Below are positions 7,002 through 20,404 of a stretch of 28,322 nt of DNA, piece by piece. The first letter of the stretch is position 1. Each line of letters begins with the position of its first letter. The notes under the pieces were generated by a model. It was not told the DNA's origin. It did not search any database and saw only the letters and a list, made by a program, of their open reading frames with translations. A program made the translations under genes and the position numbers. The stretch spans positions 1 to 28,322 of the IMG/VR virus record IMGVR_UViG_3300037246_001295, one strand, 5' to 3'. This stretch comes from a virus.

Positions 7002-7184
7002 ATGAAAATAATAGATGCTAAATGGACAAGTAAGTTTAATATACTTATCATTAAATGTCATGTATGTGATACTGAATTTGAGCATAGATCAGATAGATGG
7101 AACGCCAGATGTACATATTGTCATACACAAGAGAAATTAGATGTAATAAGAGATAGATATATGAAAGGAGTGATTAAGAAGTAG
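7002..7184 (+). CDS. Zinc-ribbon microprotein, 60 residues
   Basis: The product has one zinc ribbon: CHVC at about residues 19-22 and CTYC at about 37-40. Basic and aromatic residues surround it and the C-terminus is helical and Lys-rich. ATG 7002 begins within two bases of the structured RNA candidate, and no ordinary Shine-Dalgarno is visible upstream, so its translation could depend on that RNA fold. Specific function unknown. Confidence 0.65.
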   Translation: MKIIDAKWTSKFNILIIKCHVCDTEFEHRSDRWNARCTYCHTQEKLDVIRDRYMKGVIKK

Positions 7185-7197
7185 GAGGAGTTGAAAA

Positions 7198-7974
7198 TTG
7201 AAATCTGTTTTTGTTGACGAGAAAACACTCGACAGCATGTGGTTTGTATTGCTGTCTGAAGTATATAAGCACGGAAGAAAAAATCATATAGATTATGGAA
7301 GTTTTGCAGGCTCAAATAGATTAGAGTTTGACTATGTTGCTGGTACAATAGAATTTCCAACCACTAGACCTTTAGCACCGATAGTACCAGAGGGTGTCCC
7401 ACCAGTTACAACCGATGAAGAAATAGAAAAATACTTTACTAATTATTTAATGAATGGTGAACTAGAAGCCAACGAGCACTATAAATATGCCACATGGATT
7501 GCTGGTGGAGAATATACTTTACCACATGCCAATTTAGAAATAGGAGTTGAGCATAAGACATTTTTTGGTAATAGAGACGATATTGTAATGACTGTTCCTA
7601 ATCAGGTTCAGTGGGTTATAGACCACTATAAGTCAAAGGGACATGGTAATAATCACTGTTATATTCAAGTAGGATATCCAGAGTCAAGTTTTGCTTATGA
7701 TATTCCATGGGAAAATGAATCGGAAAGACAAACAAGTCCTTGTTTAAGAGGAATCGACACACACATAAAAGACGGAAAGTTATGCTTTGCCGTCGTTTTT
7801 CGTTCATGGGACCTATTTGCTGGATTCCCAGAGAATATGGGTGGTATAACAATGTTAATGGAGTACATGGCAAATCAGTTAGAAATAAAAACTGGGCCGT
7901 TATCATTTTCTTGTTTGAAGCTCCATTGCTATGATAGTGAAATTGAGGCGGTCAAAGCGAGGCTTAACTTATGA
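7198..7974 (+). CDS. thyA: Thymidylate synthase, archaeal-like branch
   Basis: The 258-residue protein belongs to the thymidylate synthase/dCMP hydroxymethylase superfamily, which alkylates C5 of a pyrimidine nucleotide using a folate cofactor. The nucleophile is C182 in TSPCLRGIDTHIKDGKL. It is followed by FRSWDLFAGFPENMGGI, equivalent to the RSxDxxLGxPFN core of ThyA, and by LHCY (H243, Y245), the HxY substrate pair. N213 sits where ThyA has the Asn that selects uracil; an Asp would suggest dCMP hydroxymethylase, so dUMP methylation is favoured. The phrasing resembles methanogen-type enzymes more than bacterial ThyA. The start is TTG 7198 with AGGAGGAG seven bases before. It stands beside class II ribonucleotide reductase, a natural deoxynucleotide-supply pair. 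Confidence 0.85.
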   Translation: MKSVFVDEKTLDSMWFVLLSEVYKHGRKNHIDYGSFAGSNRLEFDYVAGTIEFPTTRPLAPIVPEGVPPVTTDEEIEKYFTNYLMNGELEANEHYKYATWIAGGEYTLPHANLEIGVEHKTFFGNRDDIVMTVPNQVQWVIDHYKSKGHGNNHCYIQVGYPESSFAYDIPWENESERQTSPCLRGIDTHIKDGKLCFAVVFRSWDLFAGFPENMGGITMLMEYMANQLEIKTGPLSFSCLKLHCYDSEIEAVKARLNL

Positions 7975-8417: not shown

Positions 8418-10652
8418 ATGAGTAATAATTTTGGTTTAAGCGACAATGCAGTAAAAATATTTAAAGATTTATATTCATTTCAAGAAGAAACAATAAAGGA
8501 CACATTCAAAAGAGTATCAGAAGATTTTGGAACAGATAAAGAAGAAAAAGAATTAGCGTATAGTTTATTGGCTAATGGAGTTTGGAGACCAAACACACCA
8601 GTATTTTTAAATGCGGGCACAAAACATAAAGTATTTTCAGCATGTTATGTTGTCGGTCTTGAAGATAGTATGAACAGCATTTATGATATATCTGATGTTT
8701 GTAGGAAAATATTTCAGTATGGTGCCGGTGTTGGCATACCAATAGGAAATTTAAGAGAAAAAGAATCTTGGATTTTTGAGGGGAATAAAGAGAAATTACC
8801 AGAAGGTAAATCATCAGGACCTATAACTTTTATGAAGTTATATGATGCCGTGGGGGAGACGACCAAGAGTGGCGGGCGTGTTAGACGTGCCGCCATTCTT
8901 GTCTCAATGCCAGTATGGCATCCAGACATAATAGATTTTATCAGGTGTAAAGAAGTTGATGGTAGATTATCTAATATGAATATATCAGTACTTATTACTG
9001 ATAAGTTTATGCGGGCATTAGAAGATAAGGTTCCATTCGACTTAGTTTCTCCATATGATGGTAAAAAAGTTTCTGAAATTGATCCACAAGAAATATGGGA
9101 TGCAATATCACAGATGTCATGGAAGAGTGCTGATCCAGGAGTACTTTTTATTGATGCGATGAATAGATATAATCCATTGATAGAAGAGATACTTATAGAG
9201 GCAACTAATCCATGTGGGGAACAACCACTACAACCATTTAACGCATGCAATTTATCTGCAATAAACGTGAGTAAATTTTGCCGGGGAATTGGTGATTTTG
9301 ACTGGGACGGCCTTTATCAAACTACATATAAAGTAATGGGTTTGATGGATAACTTAATTGATATAATGGACTTTCCAGATGACGACGATATTCTTGATAG
9401 AAAAAGATTTAGAACAAACACCCTTAAATATAGACCAGTTGGAGTTGGACCTATGGGTCTAGCAGATTCAATGTATATACTTGGTTATAGATATGATGGC
9501 GCCGATGGTAGAAAATTTGCAGGTGAAATAATGAGGGTTATGACTTGTGCATGTGCTGTGAAAAGTTCTGAATTAGCGTATGAAAAAGGTACATTCCATA
9601 ACTACGAAACATTTAAAGAAGATATGGAAAGAATTTTAGAGGAGCATACTGGTGGTGACGAAGAAACAATGAAGAAAGTAAAAAAGTATGGTGTTAGAAA
9701 TTGCCAATTTACTACATGTCAACCCACTGGAACTACAGCATTATCATGTGATTCCTCTTATGGCATTGAGCCAATAATGGGATTATCTTTTCAAAAAAAT
9801 CTCATTTCAGGAGATACCATGATGGTAGTGAATCCTGTTTTCAAACAGAGATTTTCTAATGAGTCATGGTACTCACCAGATTTACCAGATAGAATATTTA
9901 AGAATGGTGGATCACTTAAAGGACTTCATAACATTCCAAAGGAAGTCAAAAATGTATTTGTTACGGCCCATGATATAAAGTACAAGGATAGAGTAGATAT
10001 GCAATCGGCTTTACAGAAGTATTGCTCGACTGCTATATCCAGTACTGTAAATCTATCCAAGGAAACATCAGCTCAAGAAATGTCTGATTTATATGAGTAT
10101 GCTTATAAGAAAGGTTTGAAAGGTATAACTGTATATCGTGACGGAAGCAAGAAAAACCAACCAGTAACATTTTCTAAAGAAAAGAAGAAGGGTCCATTTG
10201 AAAGACCAAAGACTCTTGACTCTAAGACGCATGTAGTTGAAACTGGAAATGGTAAAATGTATGTAACTGTCTCGCATTATAAGGGTAAACCACTAGAATT
10301 ATTTATATTTCTTGGGAAGAGTGGTCAAATATTAAATACATTGTCTGAAGCTATGGGTAGAGTAATATCAATAGGTCTACAACAGGGCGTGCCGGTAGAA
10401 GAAATTACTAAAACTTTGATAAATATAAATAGTGATAAGATGGTTTGGTACCGTTTCGAAGATACGGACCAAAGACCAACACAAATACTGAGCATTCCTG
10501 ATGGCGTAGCGAAACTCCTTGATAGGTATTATACGGGAGTAAAGTACAACGGGGAACTTGGCGGAGAAATATGTGAGAAATGTGGTAACTTTATGACCGC
10601 AATGGAAGGTTGTTTCAATTGTCCAGCTTGTGGCCATAGTAAATGCTCATAA
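8418..10652 (+). CDS. nrdJ: Adenosylcobalamin-dependent ribonucleotide reductase (class II)
   Basis: This 744-residue enzyme reduces ribonucleotides to deoxyribonucleotides with a radical generated from coenzyme B12. It has no ATP-cone. The 10-stranded barrel shows RPNTPVFLNAG (57-67), the first redox cysteine C76 in SACYV, GAGVGI (102-107), the SGGRVRRAA loop, the thiyl-radical motif N264-P-C266-G-E268, and the partner C277 in ACNLSAIN. Later come PTGTTALSCDSSYGIEP and GLKGITVYRDGSKKNQPV, both typical of B12-dependent enzymes. Residues about 607-680 form a TSCPD domain. The last 30 residues are a Cys-rich zinc ribbon that can shuttle electrons to the active site. No separate small subunit is needed or seen. 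The start follows the preceding stop by six bases. Use implies a host that makes or imports cobalamin. Confidence 0.96.
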   Translation: MSNNFGLSDNAVKIFKDLYSFQEETIKDTFKRVSEDFGTDKEEKELAYSLLANGVWRPNTPVFLNAGTKHKVFSACYVVGLEDSMNSIYDISDVCRKIFQYGAGVGIPIGNLREKESWIFEGNKEKLPEGKSSGPITFMKLYDAVGETTKSGGRVRRAAILVSMPVWHPDIIDFIRCKEVDGRLSNMNISVLITDKFMRALEDKVPFDLVSPYDGKKVSEIDPQEIWDAISQMSWKSADPGVLFIDAMNRYNPLIEEILIEATNPCGEQPLQPFNACNLSAINVSKFCRGIGDFDWDGLYQTTYKVMGLMDNLIDIMDFPDDDDILDRKRFRTNTLKYRPVGVGPMGLADSMYILGYRYDGADGRKFAGEIMRVMTCACAVKSSELAYEKGTFHNYETFKEDMERILEEHTGGDEETMKKVKKYGVRNCQFTTCQPTGTTALSCDSSYGIEPIMGLSFQKNLISGDTMMVVNPVFKQRFSNESWYSPDLPDRIFKNGGSLKGLHNIPKEVKNVFVTAHDIKYKDRVDMQSALQKYCSTAISSTVNLSKETSAQEMSDLYEYAYKKGLKGITVYRDGSKKNQPVTFSKEKKKGPFERPKTLDSKTHVVETGNGKMYVTVSHYKGKPLELFIFLGKSGQILNTLSEAMGRVISIGLQQGVPVEEITKTLININSDKMVWYRFEDTDQRPTQILSIPDGVAKLLDRYYTGVKYNGELGGEICEKCGNFMTAMEGCFNCPACGHSKCS

Positions 10653-11259: not shown

Positions 11260-12549
11260 ATGAGAAGAGGTAAAAGTAAAATTGGATTGAAAAGTTGGAT
11301 TGGGTTGGGGTTTTTAACCACAGTGTTGATCGTAGGACTTTTCAGTCTACCAAAGATTTTTGATACTGTCGAAAAGGGCACGTATCAAGTGAAACAGGCG
11401 GCTATCACGGGAGAAATGACTGCAAAAATGACTCCTGGTACTTGGTTACAGTTATGGGGTGACATTGATCCATGGCCGAAAGCAGAAACATTCTTTTTTA
11501 CCCATGATAACGATACAAAGGGTGACGTTGATATAGACACGTCAATGGAAGTTAGATTTAATGATGGGTCTTTATGTAAGATTTCTGGAACCCTTCGTAT
11601 TATCATGCCAATAACAGAGAGTGAGGCAATTGCTCTTACAACCGAAAAGGGTCATAAGACCTACTTGGATGTACAAGAGAAGCTTATCAAACCTACAGTA
11701 CGAAATGTACTCCGTTCTACTGCCAACCTTATGTCCGCTCGAGAATCCTATTCTGAAAAACGACCTGACTTTGTTTCTTGGTCACGTGACCAGATTGAAA
11801 ATGGTATATATCAAACAGAAGAAACAACTAAACAGGTTAAAGATTTGGTATCTGGTGAAATGATTTGGAAAAGAGTTAAAAAGATTAAACAAAAAGATGG
11901 TATACCATTACATCAGAAAAATCCAATGGCTGGAAGTGGGATTGTGTTAACGAACTTTGAAATTAAACAATTTGTGTATGAGAAAAAAGTTCAGAAACAA
12001 ATCTCGAGTCAACAGGAAGCAAGGATGGCCGTTGAGACTGCTAAGGCGAAAGCTGAGGAAGCTGAGCAGGATCGTTTGACCATTGAAGCCGAAGGTAAAG
12101 CTAAGGTTGCGACCGCTAGGTACGAAGAAGAGCAGATAAAAATGCGTGCGGTTGTTGTCGCTCAAAGGGATAAAGAAGTTAAGATCATTGAAGGTGAAAG
12201 ACTCAAGGAATACGCAGGGCTTGAGAGAGATGCTGCTAAACTTCAAAAAGAGAAAAACATCCTGGATGGGCAAGGTCTTGCTGAAAAGCGTAGACTGGTA
12301 TTGGCCGCTGATGGTGCTTTGAAGCAAAAATTAGCAACATATGAAATGGTTAATAAGGACTGGGCGGATGCATTTGCTCGAAGAAAGGTTCCTGCTTACT
12401 ATATGAGTGGTCAGACTGGTGATGGTAGCGGTGGAAATGGAAGTCTTGATATGGAAACTAAACAGTTTCAACAAATGATTAACATTTTAACCGCCCAATC
12501 TCTTGGTTTGGATTTGTCTATCAAAACCAGTGATGTAGAAACTGAGTAA
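11260..12549 (+). CDS. SPFH/Band 7 (prohibitin/flotillin-like) membrane protein
   Basis: The 429-residue protein has a short basic N-terminus, one transmembrane helix (about residues 12-30, GLGFLTTVLIVGLFSL) and an SPFH domain (about 35-245) with the family's opening KGTYQVKQAAITGEM and strand-rich core. A long Ala/Glu/Lys coiled coil follows (about 248-365, for example AVETAKAKAEEAEQDRLTIE). The C-terminal tail is Gly/Ser-rich and then helical. SPFH proteins form membrane-anchored cages; HflK/HflC controls the FtsH protease, and flotillins organise membrane domains. In a phage it could modulate host FtsH, stabilise the envelope or assist superinfection control, all inferred. It is the first gene after a strong promoter and is followed by a hairpin. 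Confidence 0.9.
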   Translation: MRRGKSKIGLKSWIGLGFLTTVLIVGLFSLPKIFDTVEKGTYQVKQAAITGEMTAKMTPGTWLQLWGDIDPWPKAETFFFTHDNDTKGDVDIDTSMEVRFNDGSLCKISGTLRIIMPITESEAIALTTEKGHKTYLDVQEKLIKPTVRNVLRSTANLMSARESYSEKRPDFVSWSRDQIENGIYQTEETTKQVKDLVSGEMIWKRVKKIKQKDGIPLHQKNPMAGSGIVLTNFEIKQFVYEKKVQKQISSQQEARMAVETAKAKAEEAEQDRLTIEAEGKAKVATARYEEEQIKMRAVVVAQRDKEVKIIEGERLKEYAGLERDAAKLQKEKNILDGQGLAEKRRLVLAADGALKQKLATYEMVNKDWADAFARRKVPAYYMSGQTGDGSGGNGSLDMETKQFQQMINILTAQSLGLDLSIKTSDVETE

Positions 12550-14424: not shown

Positions 14425-15254
14425 CTATATTAGGTTTGGGTCCATTTATAGGGGAATTTAAGCATGAGTTTTTAACTTTCCGTCCCTACGCAAGATGGCT
14501 GACAGAAGTTATTGATTTTAAAAACGTATATGTTAGCACACATATGAATAGATCATTTATGTATGACTTCGTACCAGACCAAAATATAATCCCAGTTTAT
14601 GAAGTTTTTTCCAGAAATGAATCAGGTCAAAGGGGATATGTACATAAAGACTTACAACAGAAGGACTTCAACTTACTAGTAAGAAAATTTAGAAATGAAG
14701 TGGTGGAAAGAGAATCATGTTCAAAGAAAGAAGTTGAAATACACCATTTAAACTACGTAAAATCAACACCGCATTACTCAATCTATAATAAGATATTTGA
14801 ACAAATATCTATACCAAATGGCATAAATATACCTAAAGAACATTATAATAAAATTGTTTTTATTCCAGCTACAACGGAAGTACTGGAGAAGTGTTCATAT
14901 ATTTACAGTTATTTAAAACAAGAACAAGATTGCCTTGTAGTTGGTAATATAGATACGTGGTTTTCTAATGATAATGTTGTGCTATCTAATATTGACTACT
15001 TTGAAAATGGTTGGAAGTATATAGTAAATTATATATCTAAGGCAAATGCTATTGTTTGTCCACTCAGTTATTGGACTGCTTTATGCAATTTACAGAATAA
15101 ACCTGTATTTAGTTGGGGTGTCAGTCCGGGACAGTATAGAGAAGGCGGTGTGTACTACTTTGGTAATAAAAAATCAGTTGTTATACCGGCTGATGTAGAT
15201 ACTAACCCAGATATTATAATAAAAATGATACAAAGTTTTTTAAAGGAGTTGTAA
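14421..15254 (+). CDS. Possible GT-B glycosyltransferase-like protein, 277 residues
   Basis: The start overlaps the previous stop (ATGA). The N-terminal half begins ILGLGPFIGEFKHEFLTF and includes YVSTHMNRSFMYDF. The C-terminal half contains VFIPATTEVLEKCSYI, VVGNIDTW and ANAIVCPLSYWTALCNLQNK followed by PVFSWG. The last phrase resembles the nucleotide-sugar-binding region of GT9/ADP-heptose-type transferases, where a conserved stretch of small and aromatic residues precedes a Gly-containing turn. The similarity is one of pattern only. Its stop overlaps the first capsid-targeting-like gene (TAATG). Confidence 0.45.
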   Translation: MTILGLGPFIGEFKHEFLTFRPYARWLTEVIDFKNVYVSTHMNRSFMYDFVPDQNIIPVYEVFSRNESGQRGYVHKDLQQKDFNLLVRKFRNEVVERESCSKKEVEIHHLNYVKSTPHYSIYNKIFEQISIPNGINIPKEHYNKIVFIPATTEVLEKCSYIYSYLKQEQDCLVVGNIDTWFSNDNVVLSNIDYFENGWKYIVNYISKANAIVCPLSYWTALCNLQNKPVFSWGVSPGQYREGGVYYFGNKKSVVIPADVDTNPDIIIKMIQSFLKEL

Positions 15255-15460
15255 TGATTGATAAAATAGATAAATATTTAACTGAAGAGTGGATGCCAAA
15301 TAATTTAAATCCAAAATTAAATAGAGAAGTATCAAAAATATCAAAAATGGTTGATTATGATATTGCAGCCGCTGCTGCTTTTGCGGTATCTCTTTTAGAG
15401 GATGTAAATTTCCATGAGGCGGCAAAAGTACTTAACGACTATGCAGTTAAAAACATATAG
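15254..15460 (+). CDS. Small protein with a capsid-targeting-like N-terminus, 68 residues
   Basis: The N-terminus MIDKIDKYLTE ends in L-x-E at residue 11, matching the cleavage rule of T4 prohead protease gp21 ([LI]-x-E then cut). The rest is short and helical, with an Ala-rich stretch (DIAAAAAFAVSLLEDV). It is first of ten genes with this tag, starts on the stop of the previous gene (TAATG), and would be an internal head protein or head-core component. The residue after the predicted cut is Glu, less usual than Ala, Gly or Ser. Confidence 0.6.
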   Translation: MIDKIDKYLTEEWMPNNLNPKLNREVSKISKMVDYDIAAAAAFAVSLLEDVNFHEAAKVLNDYAVKNI

Positions 15461-15475: not shown

Positions 15476-15679
15476 ATGAGATTTACAGATTTCATAAACG
15501 AAAGAACATTATATGATAGCTTGATAAACATGGTAGCCGTGGTAAGTAAAAAAGCTGACTGGATGTATGTTAATGATATTGTTAATAAAGCATTTGGTCA
15601 AAAACTTATCTCACAAAAACAACTATTTAGATTAGACAGAGAACTGAAAGAAATAGCTACGTCAGCCAGGATAAAGTAA
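15476..15679 (+). CDS. Small protein with a capsid-targeting-like N-terminus, 67 residues
   Basis: MRFTDFINE places I-x-E at residues 7-9, the same position as in several neighbours. After it the protein is helical and basic (VSKKADWMYVNDIVNKAFGQ, KQLFRLDRELKEI). Basic mature internal proteins are typical of the T4 head, where they pack with DNA. ATG 15476 has GAAAGGAAAG upstream, and the stop overlaps the next start (TAATG). No enzyme motif is seen. Confidence 0.6.
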   Translation: MRFTDFINERTLYDSLINMVAVVSKKADWMYVNDIVNKAFGQKLISQKQLFRLDRELKEIATSARIK

Positions 15680-16466: not shown

Positions 16467-16736
16467 GTGCCAATTTTTGATTTTGATTGCGAACATTGTG
16501 GTTTAGAATTTGATAAGTTGGTAAGTAGCGGTGTTGCCATCGCTACTTGCCCGAAATGTAGTGGTGATTCTTTTAAAGTATTTCCAAGAAAAGCACCCGG
16601 TATTGAGTTGAAGTTTAATAATGCAACTGATATGTGTGATTGGGGTGGAAACACTTCTCACTATTGGGATGCGTATAAACAAGATAAAGCAGACGGGAAA
16701 GACGTAAGAATACCTAAACATGATGGAGATGGATGA
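16467..16736 (+). CDS. FmdB-like zinc-ribbon protein, 89 residues
   Basis: The start is GTG 16467, with AAGGGAGA upstream. The protein opens MPIFDFDCEHCGLEFDKLV and has a second knuckle CPKC, the FmdB layout. Its C-terminal extension (from about residue 45, with MCDWGGNTSHYWDAYK) differs from the member at 16113, so they are diverged paralogues rather than recent copies. Its stop overlaps the putative ADP-ribosyltransferase gene (ATGA). Confidence 0.8.
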   Translation: MPIFDFDCEHCGLEFDKLVSSGVAIATCPKCSGDSFKVFPRKAPGIELKFNNATDMCDWGGNTSHYWDAYKQDKADGKDVRIPKHDGDG

Positions 16737-17146
16737 AATTAAGACAATACTTAACTGAAAGTGAAGTAAAGAAAACACTTACTCTATATCATGGGGTTAA
16801 GAACGCCAAGAATGTAGAGAAGATATTGAAATCTGGGTTTAAATTAATTTATATAAATCCACAGTGGCAAAATGACTATGCAATATCTGCAGTAAAAACA
16901 AAGAAACAAGTTACTGATTTTTTTGGTAGAGAAGTTGTTGTGCTTAAGTTTAAATTTAGTGGTAATGTATACATGTTAGATAAATTTGAAACAGTTGGTT
17001 CTGAATATGTTGGTTTTCCAAGCACACCACAACAATATACAAGAAATATTGTAAAAGAAGGAATAGATGCTGTGTCTTTACATGGTGGAATACAATACTT
17101 TATATACAACATAAAGAAAATATCTAACATACAGGTGGTAAAATGA
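16733..17146 (+). CDS. Putative ADP-ribosyltransferase with a capsid-targeting-like N-terminus
   Basis: The 137-residue product starts MKLRQYLTE (L-x-E at residues 7-9, then Ser), the tag shared by ten genes here. The body resembles small ADP-ribosyltransferase domains: LYHGVKNAKNVEKILKSGFK (the Y-H-G motif at 19-21 that grips NAD), the strand REVVVLKFKFSGNVYML, GIDAV (110-114), and QYFIYNIKKISNIQVV at the end. The last fits the usual E-Y-V-V-Y-x-x-x-x-I element, but with Gln (Q121) in place of the usual catalytic Glu. T4 Alt is an ADP-ribosyltransferase that is packaged, cleaved by gp21 and injected to modify host RNA polymerase; this would be a miniature counterpart. The Gln could mean altered chemistry or loss of activity. 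Confidence 0.6.
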   Translation: MKLRQYLTESEVKKTLTLYHGVKNAKNVEKILKSGFKLIYINPQWQNDYAISAVKTKKQVTDFFGREVVVLKFKFSGNVYMLDKFETVGSEYVGFPSTPQQYTRNIVKEGIDAVSLHGGIQYFIYNIKKISNIQVVK

Positions 17147-17358
17147 AAATAAAAAAGTATTTAAATGAAGGTGCATTAGATAAGAGAATGTCCAGTATGA
17201 AAGCCGATATAGAAAAGAAGTATGGGACAATACAGGGCAAAACAGTTGACTTAATCTATAATCAACTTATGAAAGTTCCGGATTACAAGAAATTATCAAT
17301 GGATCGTCAGGGTGAAATTGCAATGAAAGTACTTATGATGATAAAGGGGATAAAGTGA
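17143..17358 (+). CDS. Small protein with a capsid-targeting-like N-terminus, 71 residues
   Basis: MKIKKYLNE has L-x-E at residues 7-9 followed by Gly. The rest is basic and helical (KRMSSMKADIEKKYGTIQGK, then DRQGEIAMKVLMMIKGIK). ATG 17143 overlaps the previous stop (ATGA). No domain is recognised. A compact basic protein would fit an internal head protein. Confidence 0.6.
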   Translation: MKIKKYLNEGALDKRMSSMKADIEKKYGTIQGKTVDLIYNQLMKVPDYKKLSMDRQGEIAMKVLMMIKGIK

Positions 17359-17597
17359 TGGATAAAGTAGACAAATATTTAAAAGAATCAAAAGAAAAGG
17401 ATGCTCTAAAAAGTTGGAATAGTGATGATTTTACTGCTCTTAGAGATTCTTACTATGGTGTAATGGAAAATATAGAAACGCTAGCATCACAGTTGAATGC
17501 GTTAAACGGTGATACTGGTTTATTTGGTAAAGATTTAAACCTGGCGGTCAAGGGACGTGATGCTTTTAGAAAATTGACTCTGGGAAAATACGTATAA
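17358..17597 (+). CDS. Tagged small protein, first of a tandem paralogue pair, 79 residues
   Basis: The product begins MDKVDKYLKE (L-x-E at residues 8-10, then Ser) and is helical. It is clearly related to the next gene along its full length: both share the M-D-K-x-D-K-Y-L start, a GLFGKDxxLA phrase near residue 60 and the C-terminus TLGKY. ATG 17358 is chosen over GTG 17355 because it matches the paralogue. The stop overlaps the next start (TAATG). Function unknown. Confidence 0.68.
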   Translation: MDKVDKYLKESKEKDALKSWNSDDFTALRDSYYGVMENIETLASQLNALNGDTGLFGKDLNLAVKGRDAFRKLTLGKYV

Positions 17598-17839
17598 TGG
17601 ATAAACTAGATAAGTACTTAAGAGAGTCAAAAGAACAAGATTTTGTTAAATCTTTGGATAAGAATGAAATCAAACATGTGCGTGAAACATTCAAAGAAGC
17701 ATATGACTATCTTGATGATTTATCATTTTCAATGGAAGCTTGGAATGAGGACTCAAAAGGTTTGTTTGGAAAAGATATGAAGCTGGCATTACAAGCCTTT
17801 AATGCTATTAAAAAAATGACTCTGGGAAAATACATATAA
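17597..17839 (+). CDS. Tagged small protein, second of a tandem paralogue pair, 80 residues
   Basis: MDKLDKYLRE ends with L-x-E at residues 8-10, then Ser. The protein aligns with its upstream neighbour from end to end, with GLFGKDMKLA and MTLGKYI at matching positions. The DNA around both stop codons is also nearly identical (GACTCTGGGAAAATAC then TATAATG), which indicates duplication with later divergence of the middle part. It starts on the stop codon of its copy. Confidence 0.68.
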   Translation: MDKLDKYLRESKEQDFVKSLDKNEIKHVRETFKEAYDYLDDLSFSMEAWNEDSKGLFGKDMKLALQAFNAIKKMTLGKYI

Positions 17840-18132: not shown

Positions 18133-18390
18133 ATGGCGACATTAAATCAATTTTTAGAAAAAGCTTTGGATGAAGCTACGAATAGATCGTTTCAGGATCA
18201 GATGAAAAAAGATGGAATGGAAGGCGGACCTGGAAGATATGAAGTTTTTATAAAAGTGAGTATGAATTTTAAAGCAGATAGCATGGATGATGCTATGGCT
18301 AAGGCATCCGACTTCTTAAACAAGGCTGAGAAACAAAATAGAAAACTTGGCGTTGTGGCTGAAATTGATGGGGTAGATGGTCCGATGTAA
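18133..18390 (+). CDS. Small protein with a capsid-targeting-like N-terminus, 85 residues
   Basis: The N-terminus MATLNQFLEKALDE carries L-x-E at residues 12-14 followed by Ala, a slightly longer tag than its neighbours. The remainder includes YEVFIKVSMNFKADSMDDAM and a helical segment ending in a Gly/Asp/Pro turn. It resembles a small alpha-beta unit, but no family is recognised. ATG 18133 follows AAGGAGA. The next promoter begins two bases after its stop. Confidence 0.58.
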   Translation: MATLNQFLEKALDEATNRSFQDQMKKDGMEGGPGRYEVFIKVSMNFKADSMDDAMAKASDFLNKAEKQNRKLGVVAEIDGVDGPM

Positions 18391-19294: not shown

Positions 19295-20404
19295 ATGAGA
19301 CTTAATGACTATTTAACCGAAGCAGCAGCTGGTTCTGCTACAACCAGATTACAAGAAGGACTACACTGTATTTTATTTGCTGCAAAACAAAAAAGAAAAA
19401 ATATAGATATGAGTGTTTTTGATGATCCAGCTTTTCTTGAGTCTGCTTATAGTACTTACTGCAGTGTAGATGCGCCATTTGCAGAACTATATAACTTTGG
19501 TGTTGATGAACCACTCTGGGCACAAAGTATAATAAAAGCAACAAATGTTCTGTTTGCTTCCGATTGGTTGAAAGGTAAGTATACTTTTCATAGAAACGAT
19601 GCGTATATGAACTCTATATACCAACAGTTTCAAAGACTAGCTAAACAAGATGGTGTCAAAATGGGAAATGATAAATGGAATCCAGGTGATGTGTGGGCAT
19701 CAAAGGGCATGAAAATTCCAGAATTTGATAGTCTTGCAGAATATAATAATTTTATTGCAAAAAATTTACATAATGGAAAACTACTTGGAATATCTTTAAA
19801 AAAGATAGCTAAAAAAGATAAAGGAAAAGTTGTTCTTGAGGGTGATCCTGCAGCTGAAGTAAAATCAGTTAAATTTGAGGGAATAAAAAAACCAAAGCTT
19901 CTTTTTCCAACTGGAATATCAGTAATGATTGGTGGAAAGTATACTATAAATTTTAGAAGTTTCAGCATAAGCAAAAATGCAAAAATTACTGGTGAAATAG
20001 TTAAAGCTGGTGGTGGTGCTAGACATGGTAAAGTTCCATCGGGTGATAAAATGAAGATGATAAATCAATATAAAATACCACAAACACCGAAGCAGACATT
20101 AAGTAAAAAAAGTGATGCTATGTTAAAAAATATGGTAGTAGATTTGTGGAAGCAATCTGGACATAATTTTTCACGGAAAGAAATAGAAGCCAGTTGGAAT
20201 AAAAAAATAACAAAAGAAGGATGGATGCCAGAATCAAAAAAAGTACAAGATAGAACAGGGTACTGGCAATCTGTTATAAATGCTCTTGAAATAGGTGCAT
20301 TTTTGTCAGCTCATAAAACTGTTGCGCATAAGATAGTTGATTTTTGGTATAAAGGAGCTAAATCAACAGGCGGAGCATCGTCTCAATTCATAAAAGTATA
20401 CTAA
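19295..20404 (+). CDS. Large tagged protein, possible injected nuclease-like effector
   Basis: This 369-residue protein is the largest with the tag: MRLNDYLTE (L-x-E at residues 7-9) followed by a small-residue run AAAGSATTR, ideal for a gp21-type cut. After a helical N-terminal half comes NDKWNPGDVWASKGM, then, some 30 residues later, LLGISLKKIAKKDKGK. An acidic residue before a strand ending S-x-K is compatible with a PD-(D/E)XK-like core, but this is weak evidence. The remainder has a Gly-rich basic stretch (KAGGGARHGKVPSGDK) and a helical C-terminus. ATG 19295 has AAAGGAG. Its stop overlaps the next start (TAATG). It could be an injected enzyme or a head-core protein. Confidence 0.6.
   Translation: MRLNDYLTEAAAGSATTRLQEGLHCILFAAKQKRKNIDMSVFDDPAFLESAYSTYCSVDAPFAELYNFGVDEPLWAQSIIKATNVLFASDWLKGKYTFHRNDAYMNSIYQQFQRLAKQDGVKMGNDKWNPGDVWASKGMKIPEFDSLAEYNNFIAKNLHNGKLLGISLKKIAKKDKGKVVLEGDPAAEVKSVKFEGIKKPKLLFPTGISVMIGGKYTINFRSFSISKNAKITGEIVKAGGGARHGKVPSGDKMKMINQYKIPQTPKQTLSKKSDAMLKNMVVDLWKQSGHNFSRKEIEASWNKKITKEGWMPESKKVQDRTGYWQSVINALEIGAFLSAHKTVAHKIVDFWYKGAKSTGGASSQFIKVY

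What the first reader, a model, noticed from the sequence alone, without database searches (positions are those of the whole stretch)
16733..17146. Miniature ADP-ribosyltransferase that may be packaged and injected
The 137-residue protein combines the tag MKLRQYLTE with an ADP-ribosyltransferase-like body (LYHG near residue 20, GIDAV, and a final QYFIYN strand). T4 Alt is a packaged ADP-ribosyltransferase of about 680 residues, so a five-fold smaller analogue with the same delivery logic would be a distinct effector. The usual catalytic Glu appears to be Gln (Q121).
Basis: partly seen in the sequence, partly recalled or inferred. Interest (0 to 1): 0.75.

Follow-up and report, generated by a model that had tools for sequence, protein, structure and literature searches.

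The report
Tiny head-packaged ADP-ribosyltransferase-like phage protein
A T4-like phage from a metagenome carries a 137-residue protein that looks like a very small ADP-ribosyltransferase with a swappable packaging tag at its start; this fits a known strategy in which phages carry enzymes in the head and inject them, but packaging, injection and enzyme activity are all unproven.

Summary
The ORF is real: 137 aa, ATG at 16733, stop-start overlaps with both neighbours, and homologues in five other metagenomic phage contigs (two incomplete or broken), under purifying selection. No Pfam, NCBIfam or GenBank-phage match exists. The body is probably ADP-ribosyltransferase (ART)-fold: a modest-confidence AlphaFold model (pLDDT 59) finds mainly ARTs in PDB and viral libraries; a second model is weaker. 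LYHG and NDYA match motifs I and II. The motif III acid is missing and that column varies (Q,Q,Y,Q,T,R), so activity is uncertain.

The N-terminus fits a T4-type capsid-targeting sequence. 7 of 13 genes at 15.25-20.4 kb have such tags against 2 of 34 elsewhere. Homologues keep the body but carry a tag resembling those of their own phage's neighbours, and the two longest contigs with homologues encode a T4-type prohead protease. Packaging is inferred, not shown.

It works like T4 Alt but is not an Alt-family member. Small phage ARTs (AcrIF11, 137-residue chain) and head-packaged ARTs are known, so this is a new family and variant of a known strategy.

The parts
16733..17146 (+). 137-aa CTS-tagged ART-like protein
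   Evidence: homologues; purifying selection
16733..16759 (+). Putative capsid-targeting sequence MKLRQYLTE; cleavage predicted after E9 (LxE motif)
   Evidence: Resembles T4 IPII/IPIII MKTYQEFIAE; tag changes with the phage while the body is kept
16784..16795 (+). ART motif I, L18-Y19-H20-G21, invariant in all four full-length members
16871..16891 (+). Putative ART motif II, N47-D48-Y49-A50-I51-S52-A53 (Y49 kept in the four full-length members; H in L059)
17060..17110 (+). GIDAV...GGIQYFIYN: C-terminal strands; Q121 stands where ARTs usually have the catalytic Glu
15254..15460 (+). 68-aa neighbour with tag MIDKIDKYLTE
15476..15679 (+). 67-aa neighbour with tag MRFTDFINE (conserved in L004)
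17143..17358 (+). 71-aa neighbour with tag MKIKKYLNE
17358..17597 (+). 79-aa neighbour with tag MDKVDKYLKE (ORF listed from GTG 17355)
17597..17839 (+). 80-aa neighbour with tag MDKLDKYLRE, probable paralogue of the preceding gene
18133..18390 (+). 85-aa neighbour MATLNQFLEKALDE, weaker tag-like start
19295..20404 (+). 369-aa protein with tag MRLNDYLTE, PHROG 1462 (function unknown), relatives in T4-like cyanophages

Best explanation
The gene encodes a minimal single-domain ART-fold effector. An N-terminal T4-type capsid-targeting sequence (about 9 residues) takes it into the assembling prohead core, where the phage's gp21-type prohead protease removes the tag after LTE. The protein rides in the head with the DNA, enters the next host cell, and there binds NAD+ through the LYHG/NDYA pocket to mono-ADP-ribosylate a host or defence target, as T4 Alt does early in infection. 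Shown: the ORF, its conservation, the tag cluster, the exchange of tags between phages, and the prohead protease in long relatives. Supported by prediction: the ART fold. Inferred: packaging, cleavage, injection, NAD binding, catalysis and target.
For: Fold: model 1 (pLDDT 59, pTM 0.55) has the order strand-helix-(loop)-helix-strand-helix-strand-strand-strand. Its best PDB matches are ARTs (SAIP prob 0.84, tankyrase, NatT toxin, diphtheria toxin, PARP16), and its viral matches include ART-PolyVal and PARP entries plus small phage proteins of 121-149 aa, E 6e-4 to 3e-3 at prob about 1. LYHG and NDY are invariant in the four full-length members. The family profile scores above 100 of 100 column-shuffled controls against ART domains in the LYHG/YHGT register, though with hhalign probability only 12%. 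Tag: 7/13 tagged genes in the cluster vs 2/34 elsewhere, Fisher p 7e-4 with bounds chosen by eye; about 0.5-3% of internal Met positions match. T4 IPII and IPIII start MKTYQEFIAE and Alt MELITELFDE; homologues in L007 and L033 start MQTFKQWLNE and MQNFKTWLNE. Body about 80% identical to L004 but different tag. Tag matches own phage's neighbour set best in 4 of 5 phages. Prohead protease PF03420 in G005 (E 1e-34) with gp23, gp22-type scaffold and portal, and in G006 (E 3e-11). Head-packaged ARTs are described as common in myoviruses (PMC9503650).
Against: Motif III acid absent and the column not conserved. No significant Pfam, NCBIfam, PHROG or PDB-sequence match. Model confidence modest, and the second model (6 sequences) gives only weak hits, although its best superpositions in the list shown are ARTs: cholix TM 0.39, 6kyf 0.38, exotoxin A about 0.3. 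The window fragment holds no detected head genes or protease. No proteomics.
Confidence: 0.5

Rival explanations
1. A head-packaged ART-fold pseudoenzyme: injected, but acting by binding NAD+, ADP-ribose or a host protein (decoy, sponge or inhibitor of an NAD/ADPr-based defence) rather than by catalysis.
For: Column 121 is Q,Q,Y,Q,T,R, never E or D, while the LYHG and NDY regions stay conserved in full-length members, and L059 has H in place of Y49.
Against: H-Y-Q is an accepted active-site pattern in the H-Y-[EDQ] clade (PMC9503650). A protein over the Pfam ART-PolyVal cut-off in G006 (L081) also has Q in the same context, QYCVFDSKNIKS. From general knowledge, several human mono-ARTs lack the Glu and are active.
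Confidence: 0.22
2. Not an ART: a small internal head or scaffold protein of another fold whose LYHG and GIDA motifs are coincidental.
For: No sequence match to any ART family over threshold; modest models.
Against: Unbiased fold searches with model 1 return ARTs first in both libraries; the invariant residues include the ART motif positions.
Confidence: 0.15
3. ART-fold protein that is not packaged; the shared N-terminus is a docking or regulatory motif, and the protein acts in the cell in which it is made.
For: In the window the tagged genes lie near replication and glycosyltransferase-like genes, not head genes. No virion data.
Against: In L007 and G005 the tagged genes lie among structural genes and their tags closely match T4 IP tags. 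Prohead protease present in long relatives.
Confidence: 0.1
4. A KptA/Tpt1-like (H-H-h clade) NAD-dependent RNA enzyme rather than a protein modifier.
For: No motif III acid; H in place of Y in L059; T4-like phages repair RNA (general knowledge).
Against: Y49 in the four full-length members; no PTS_2-RNA Pfam match for the family; a packaging tag is unexpected for an RNA-repair enzyme.
Confidence: 0.03

Closest known systems
T4 Alt (gpAlt, head-packaged mono-ADP-ribosyltransferase)
   Same: ART used as an injected effector; N-terminus with a short head-targeting propeptide (gene starts MELITELFDE).
   Different: 682 aa, R-S-E clade (PMC9503650). This protein is 137 aa with H-Y-(Q) motifs and no detectable sequence relation.
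T4 internal proteins IPI, IPII, IPIII
   Same: Small proteins with a CTS (IPII and IPIII: MKTYQEFIAE) and variable bodies, packaged and injected against host defences (PMC3012670).
   Different: IP bodies are not ARTs.
AcrIF11 (anti-CRISPR ADP-ribosyltransferase, 6kyf)
   Same: Phage-encoded single-domain ART of the same size (137-residue chain); degenerate catalytic set H-F-H-D (PMC12421852).
   Different: Keeps an acid (D115) and has a known target (Csy1 N250); no CTS known to me; no sequence match found.
ART-PolyVal (PF18760) and small phage PARP-like proteins
   Same: Same general fold; in contig G006 several carry an N-terminal tag of the same style, and one has Q at motif III.
   Different: The family falls below all Pfam thresholds.

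Membership tests
ART superfamily, H-Y-[EDQ] clade | ART fold | tested here: inconclusive
   Model 1 matches mainly ARTs, at modest confidence; model 2 weak
ART superfamily, H-Y-[EDQ] clade | Motif I His | tested here: met
   H20 invariant in LYHG in all full-length members; also in the first frame of L059
ART superfamily, H-Y-[EDQ] clade | Motif II Tyr | tested here: inconclusive
   Y49 in four of five members that cover the region, H in L059; register not proven by structure
ART superfamily, H-Y-[EDQ] clade | Motif III E, D or Q | tested here: inconclusive
   Q in three members, Y/T/R in the others
ART superfamily, H-Y-[EDQ] clade | NAD+ binding and ADP-ribose transfer | not testable with these tools
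   Needs an assay
ART-PolyVal (PF18760) or PARP (PF00644) | Match over the curated Pfam cut-off | tested here: not met
T4 Alt/VIP2 family | R-S-E catalytic motif and Alt-type sequence | tested here: not met
   Motif I is LYHG, no acid at motif III, no similarity found
T4-type CTS cargo | Short N-terminal propeptide ending in hydrophobic-x-E, shared with other genes of the phage | tested here: met
T4-type CTS cargo | gp21-type prohead protease in the genome | tested here: inconclusive
   Present in long relatives G005 and G006; not found in the fragments G000, G001, G004
T4-type CTS cargo | Cleaved protein present in virions | not testable with these tools
   Needs virion proteomics

The most novel reading that the evidence does not exclude
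A modular warhead family: a minimal ART-fold body that has lost the catalytic acid moves between T4-like and jumbo phages, each of which fits it with its own packaging tag, and it acts after injection either by acid-independent mono-ADP-ribosylation or as an NAD/ADP-ribose-binding anti-defence protein.
Probability: 0.35. Interest if true: 0.7.

Novelty: new variant of a known kind. Interest (0 to 1): 0.5.

Why it matters
If true, a packaging tag of about 10 residues marks which small unknown proteins of T4-like and jumbo phages are injected, so whole arsenals can be listed from sequence alone. Contigs G005 and G006 each appear to carry several tagged ART-like genes. The family would also test whether an ART without the catalytic acid can still act.

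Tried and rejected
Protein searches of GenBank phages with four members found nothing credible (the SPFM9, PAU and Brochothrix hits were judged chance). Two scans of genome contigs gave no homologue. The first DNA pattern with tag plus LYHG gave only chance hits. Weak Pfam and NCBIfam hits (His_biosynth, WbuZ, HisF) were rejected as far below cut-off and not shared across the family. PHROG 6170 (E 0.014, 3 of 4 members) was left unresolved. hhalign against single ART sequences was uninformative; the 48% match to L021 over 23 residues is biased because L021 was found with that motif. A second AlphaFold job with six sequences did not raise confidence.

Full report
Observation. The window is a 28,322-base virus contig; its first 25 kb have no near match to any GenBank phage. 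It carries T4-like replication genes: single-strand binding protein, exonuclease/RNase H-type protein, primase. ORF 16733-17146 encodes the 137-residue protein described, with stop-start overlaps on both sides. It has no significant match in Pfam, NCBIfam, PHROGs, PDB sequences or GenBank phages.

Relatives. A neighbour gene led to contig G001 (64.5 kb), where the homologue L004:5240-5659 lies in the same gene order and is 80% identical. Alignment searches found L007 in G004 (30 kb). A degenerate pattern for YHG....N...I...GF found L033 in G005 (129.5 kb). Further searches gave a contig-end fragment, L050/L055, and a copy in the 374-kb contig G006 (L059). The G006 copy is split between two frames with part of the first half missing; each part is recognised separately by the family profile (E 2e-21 and 0.02). 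I did not reconstruct it. Genome scans gave none. The gene is under purifying selection.

Fold. With three sequences AlphaFold gave pLDDT 59 and pTM 0.55. That is modest, but Foldseek returned ARTs at the top of PDB (SAIP, tankyrase, NatT, diphtheria toxin; best E 0.06, prob 0.84) and ART-PolyVal, PARP and small uncharacterised phage proteins in BFVD (E from 6e-4, prob 1). A second model with six sequences kept the secondary-structure order but gave weak matches. In the list shown, the targets with query-normalised TM of 0.3 or more are exotoxin A, cholix and the anti-CRISPR structure 6kyf, which is AcrIF11, an ART. The family profile exceeds 100 of 100 shuffled controls against ART domains in the correct motif register, at low absolute probability. 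I put the ART fold at about 0.8.

Active site. Invariant residues in the four full-length members include Y19-H20-G21, D48-Y49, S52, D112 and N126. The residue at the usual Glu is Q,Q,Y,Q,T,R, and L059 has H for Y49. The published H-Y-[EDQ] clade allows Gln (PMC9503650), AcrIF11 uses H-F-H-D (PMC12421852), and ART-PolyVal proteins over the Pfam cut-off in G006 show Q, E and other residues there by eye. Catalysis is possible but not predicted with confidence.

Tag. T4 IPII and IPIII begin MKTYQEFIAE and Alt MELITELFDE. The T4 CTS targets proteins to the prohead core and is removed by proteolysis (PMC3012670, PMC5694885). In the window 7 of 13 genes at 15.25-20.4 kb match M-x(4-6)-hydrophobic-aliphatic-x-E against 2 of 34 other plus-strand genes (p 7e-4; boundaries chosen after seeing the cluster). 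The L007 and L033 homologues sit in runs of genes starting MKTF/Y...L.E, interspersed with structural genes. In G006 the tag style differs (MKNLKLYEDFSVNE), and neighbours share that style. Scored against hand-collected neighbour tags, the homologue's tag fits its own phage best in four of five cases and its sister phage best in the fifth. A body kept while the tag changes to the local style is what a targeting signal predicts. G005 encodes prohead protease, gp23, gp22-type scaffold and portal homologues, and G006 a prohead protease.

Conclusion. The most likely reading is a CTS-tagged, head-packaged, minimal ART-like effector. It works like T4 Alt but is not in the Alt family (no R-S-E motif, no similarity). 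Size alone is not new. What is new is the family, its tag exchange, and its missing catalytic acid. Packaging, cleavage, injection, NAD binding and target are inferred.

Noticed in passing
L033:2570-3022 (-); L044:9014-9463 (-) and 7065-7523 (-), contig G005: At least two further T4-tag-bearing small proteins with PARP-like N-terminal motifs (PF00644 E 2e-4 and 0.05, both below the Pfam cut-off) and one with a YRG-type motif by eye: the phage seems to carry several tagged ARTs.
   Followed up: partly
G006:C1 loci L081, L082, L083, L084, L085: A 374-kb jumbo contig with four ART-PolyVal domains over the Pfam cut-off and a fifth below it; several begin with a shared MKxLK/MKHI-type N-terminal tag, and motif III varies (Q, E, others).
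   Followed up: partly
L059:800-1185: The family member in G006 is split between two reading frames with part of the first half missing; assembly error or pseudogene not decided.
   Followed up: no
window 19295-20404; L004:9971-11059 and 8872-9921: Tagged 350-370-aa proteins; the window copy matches PHROG 1462 (unknown function) and has relatives in T4-like cyanophages: a large candidate packaged protein.
   Followed up: partly
window 17358-17839: Two adjacent 80-aa tagged, probably paralogous proteins (MDKVDKYLKE / MDKLDKYLRE); the second evolves faster against L004 than other neighbours (pN 0.36).
   Followed up: no
L050:206-535; L044:8697-9017 (-): Tagged ParB-nuclease-like small proteins (by eye), one next to the ART-like gene and one among baseplate-like genes.
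   Followed up: no
window 11260-12549: 429-aa protein that looks SPFH/prohibitin-like by eye (PHROG 11908, function unknown), conserved in L004.
   Followed up: no
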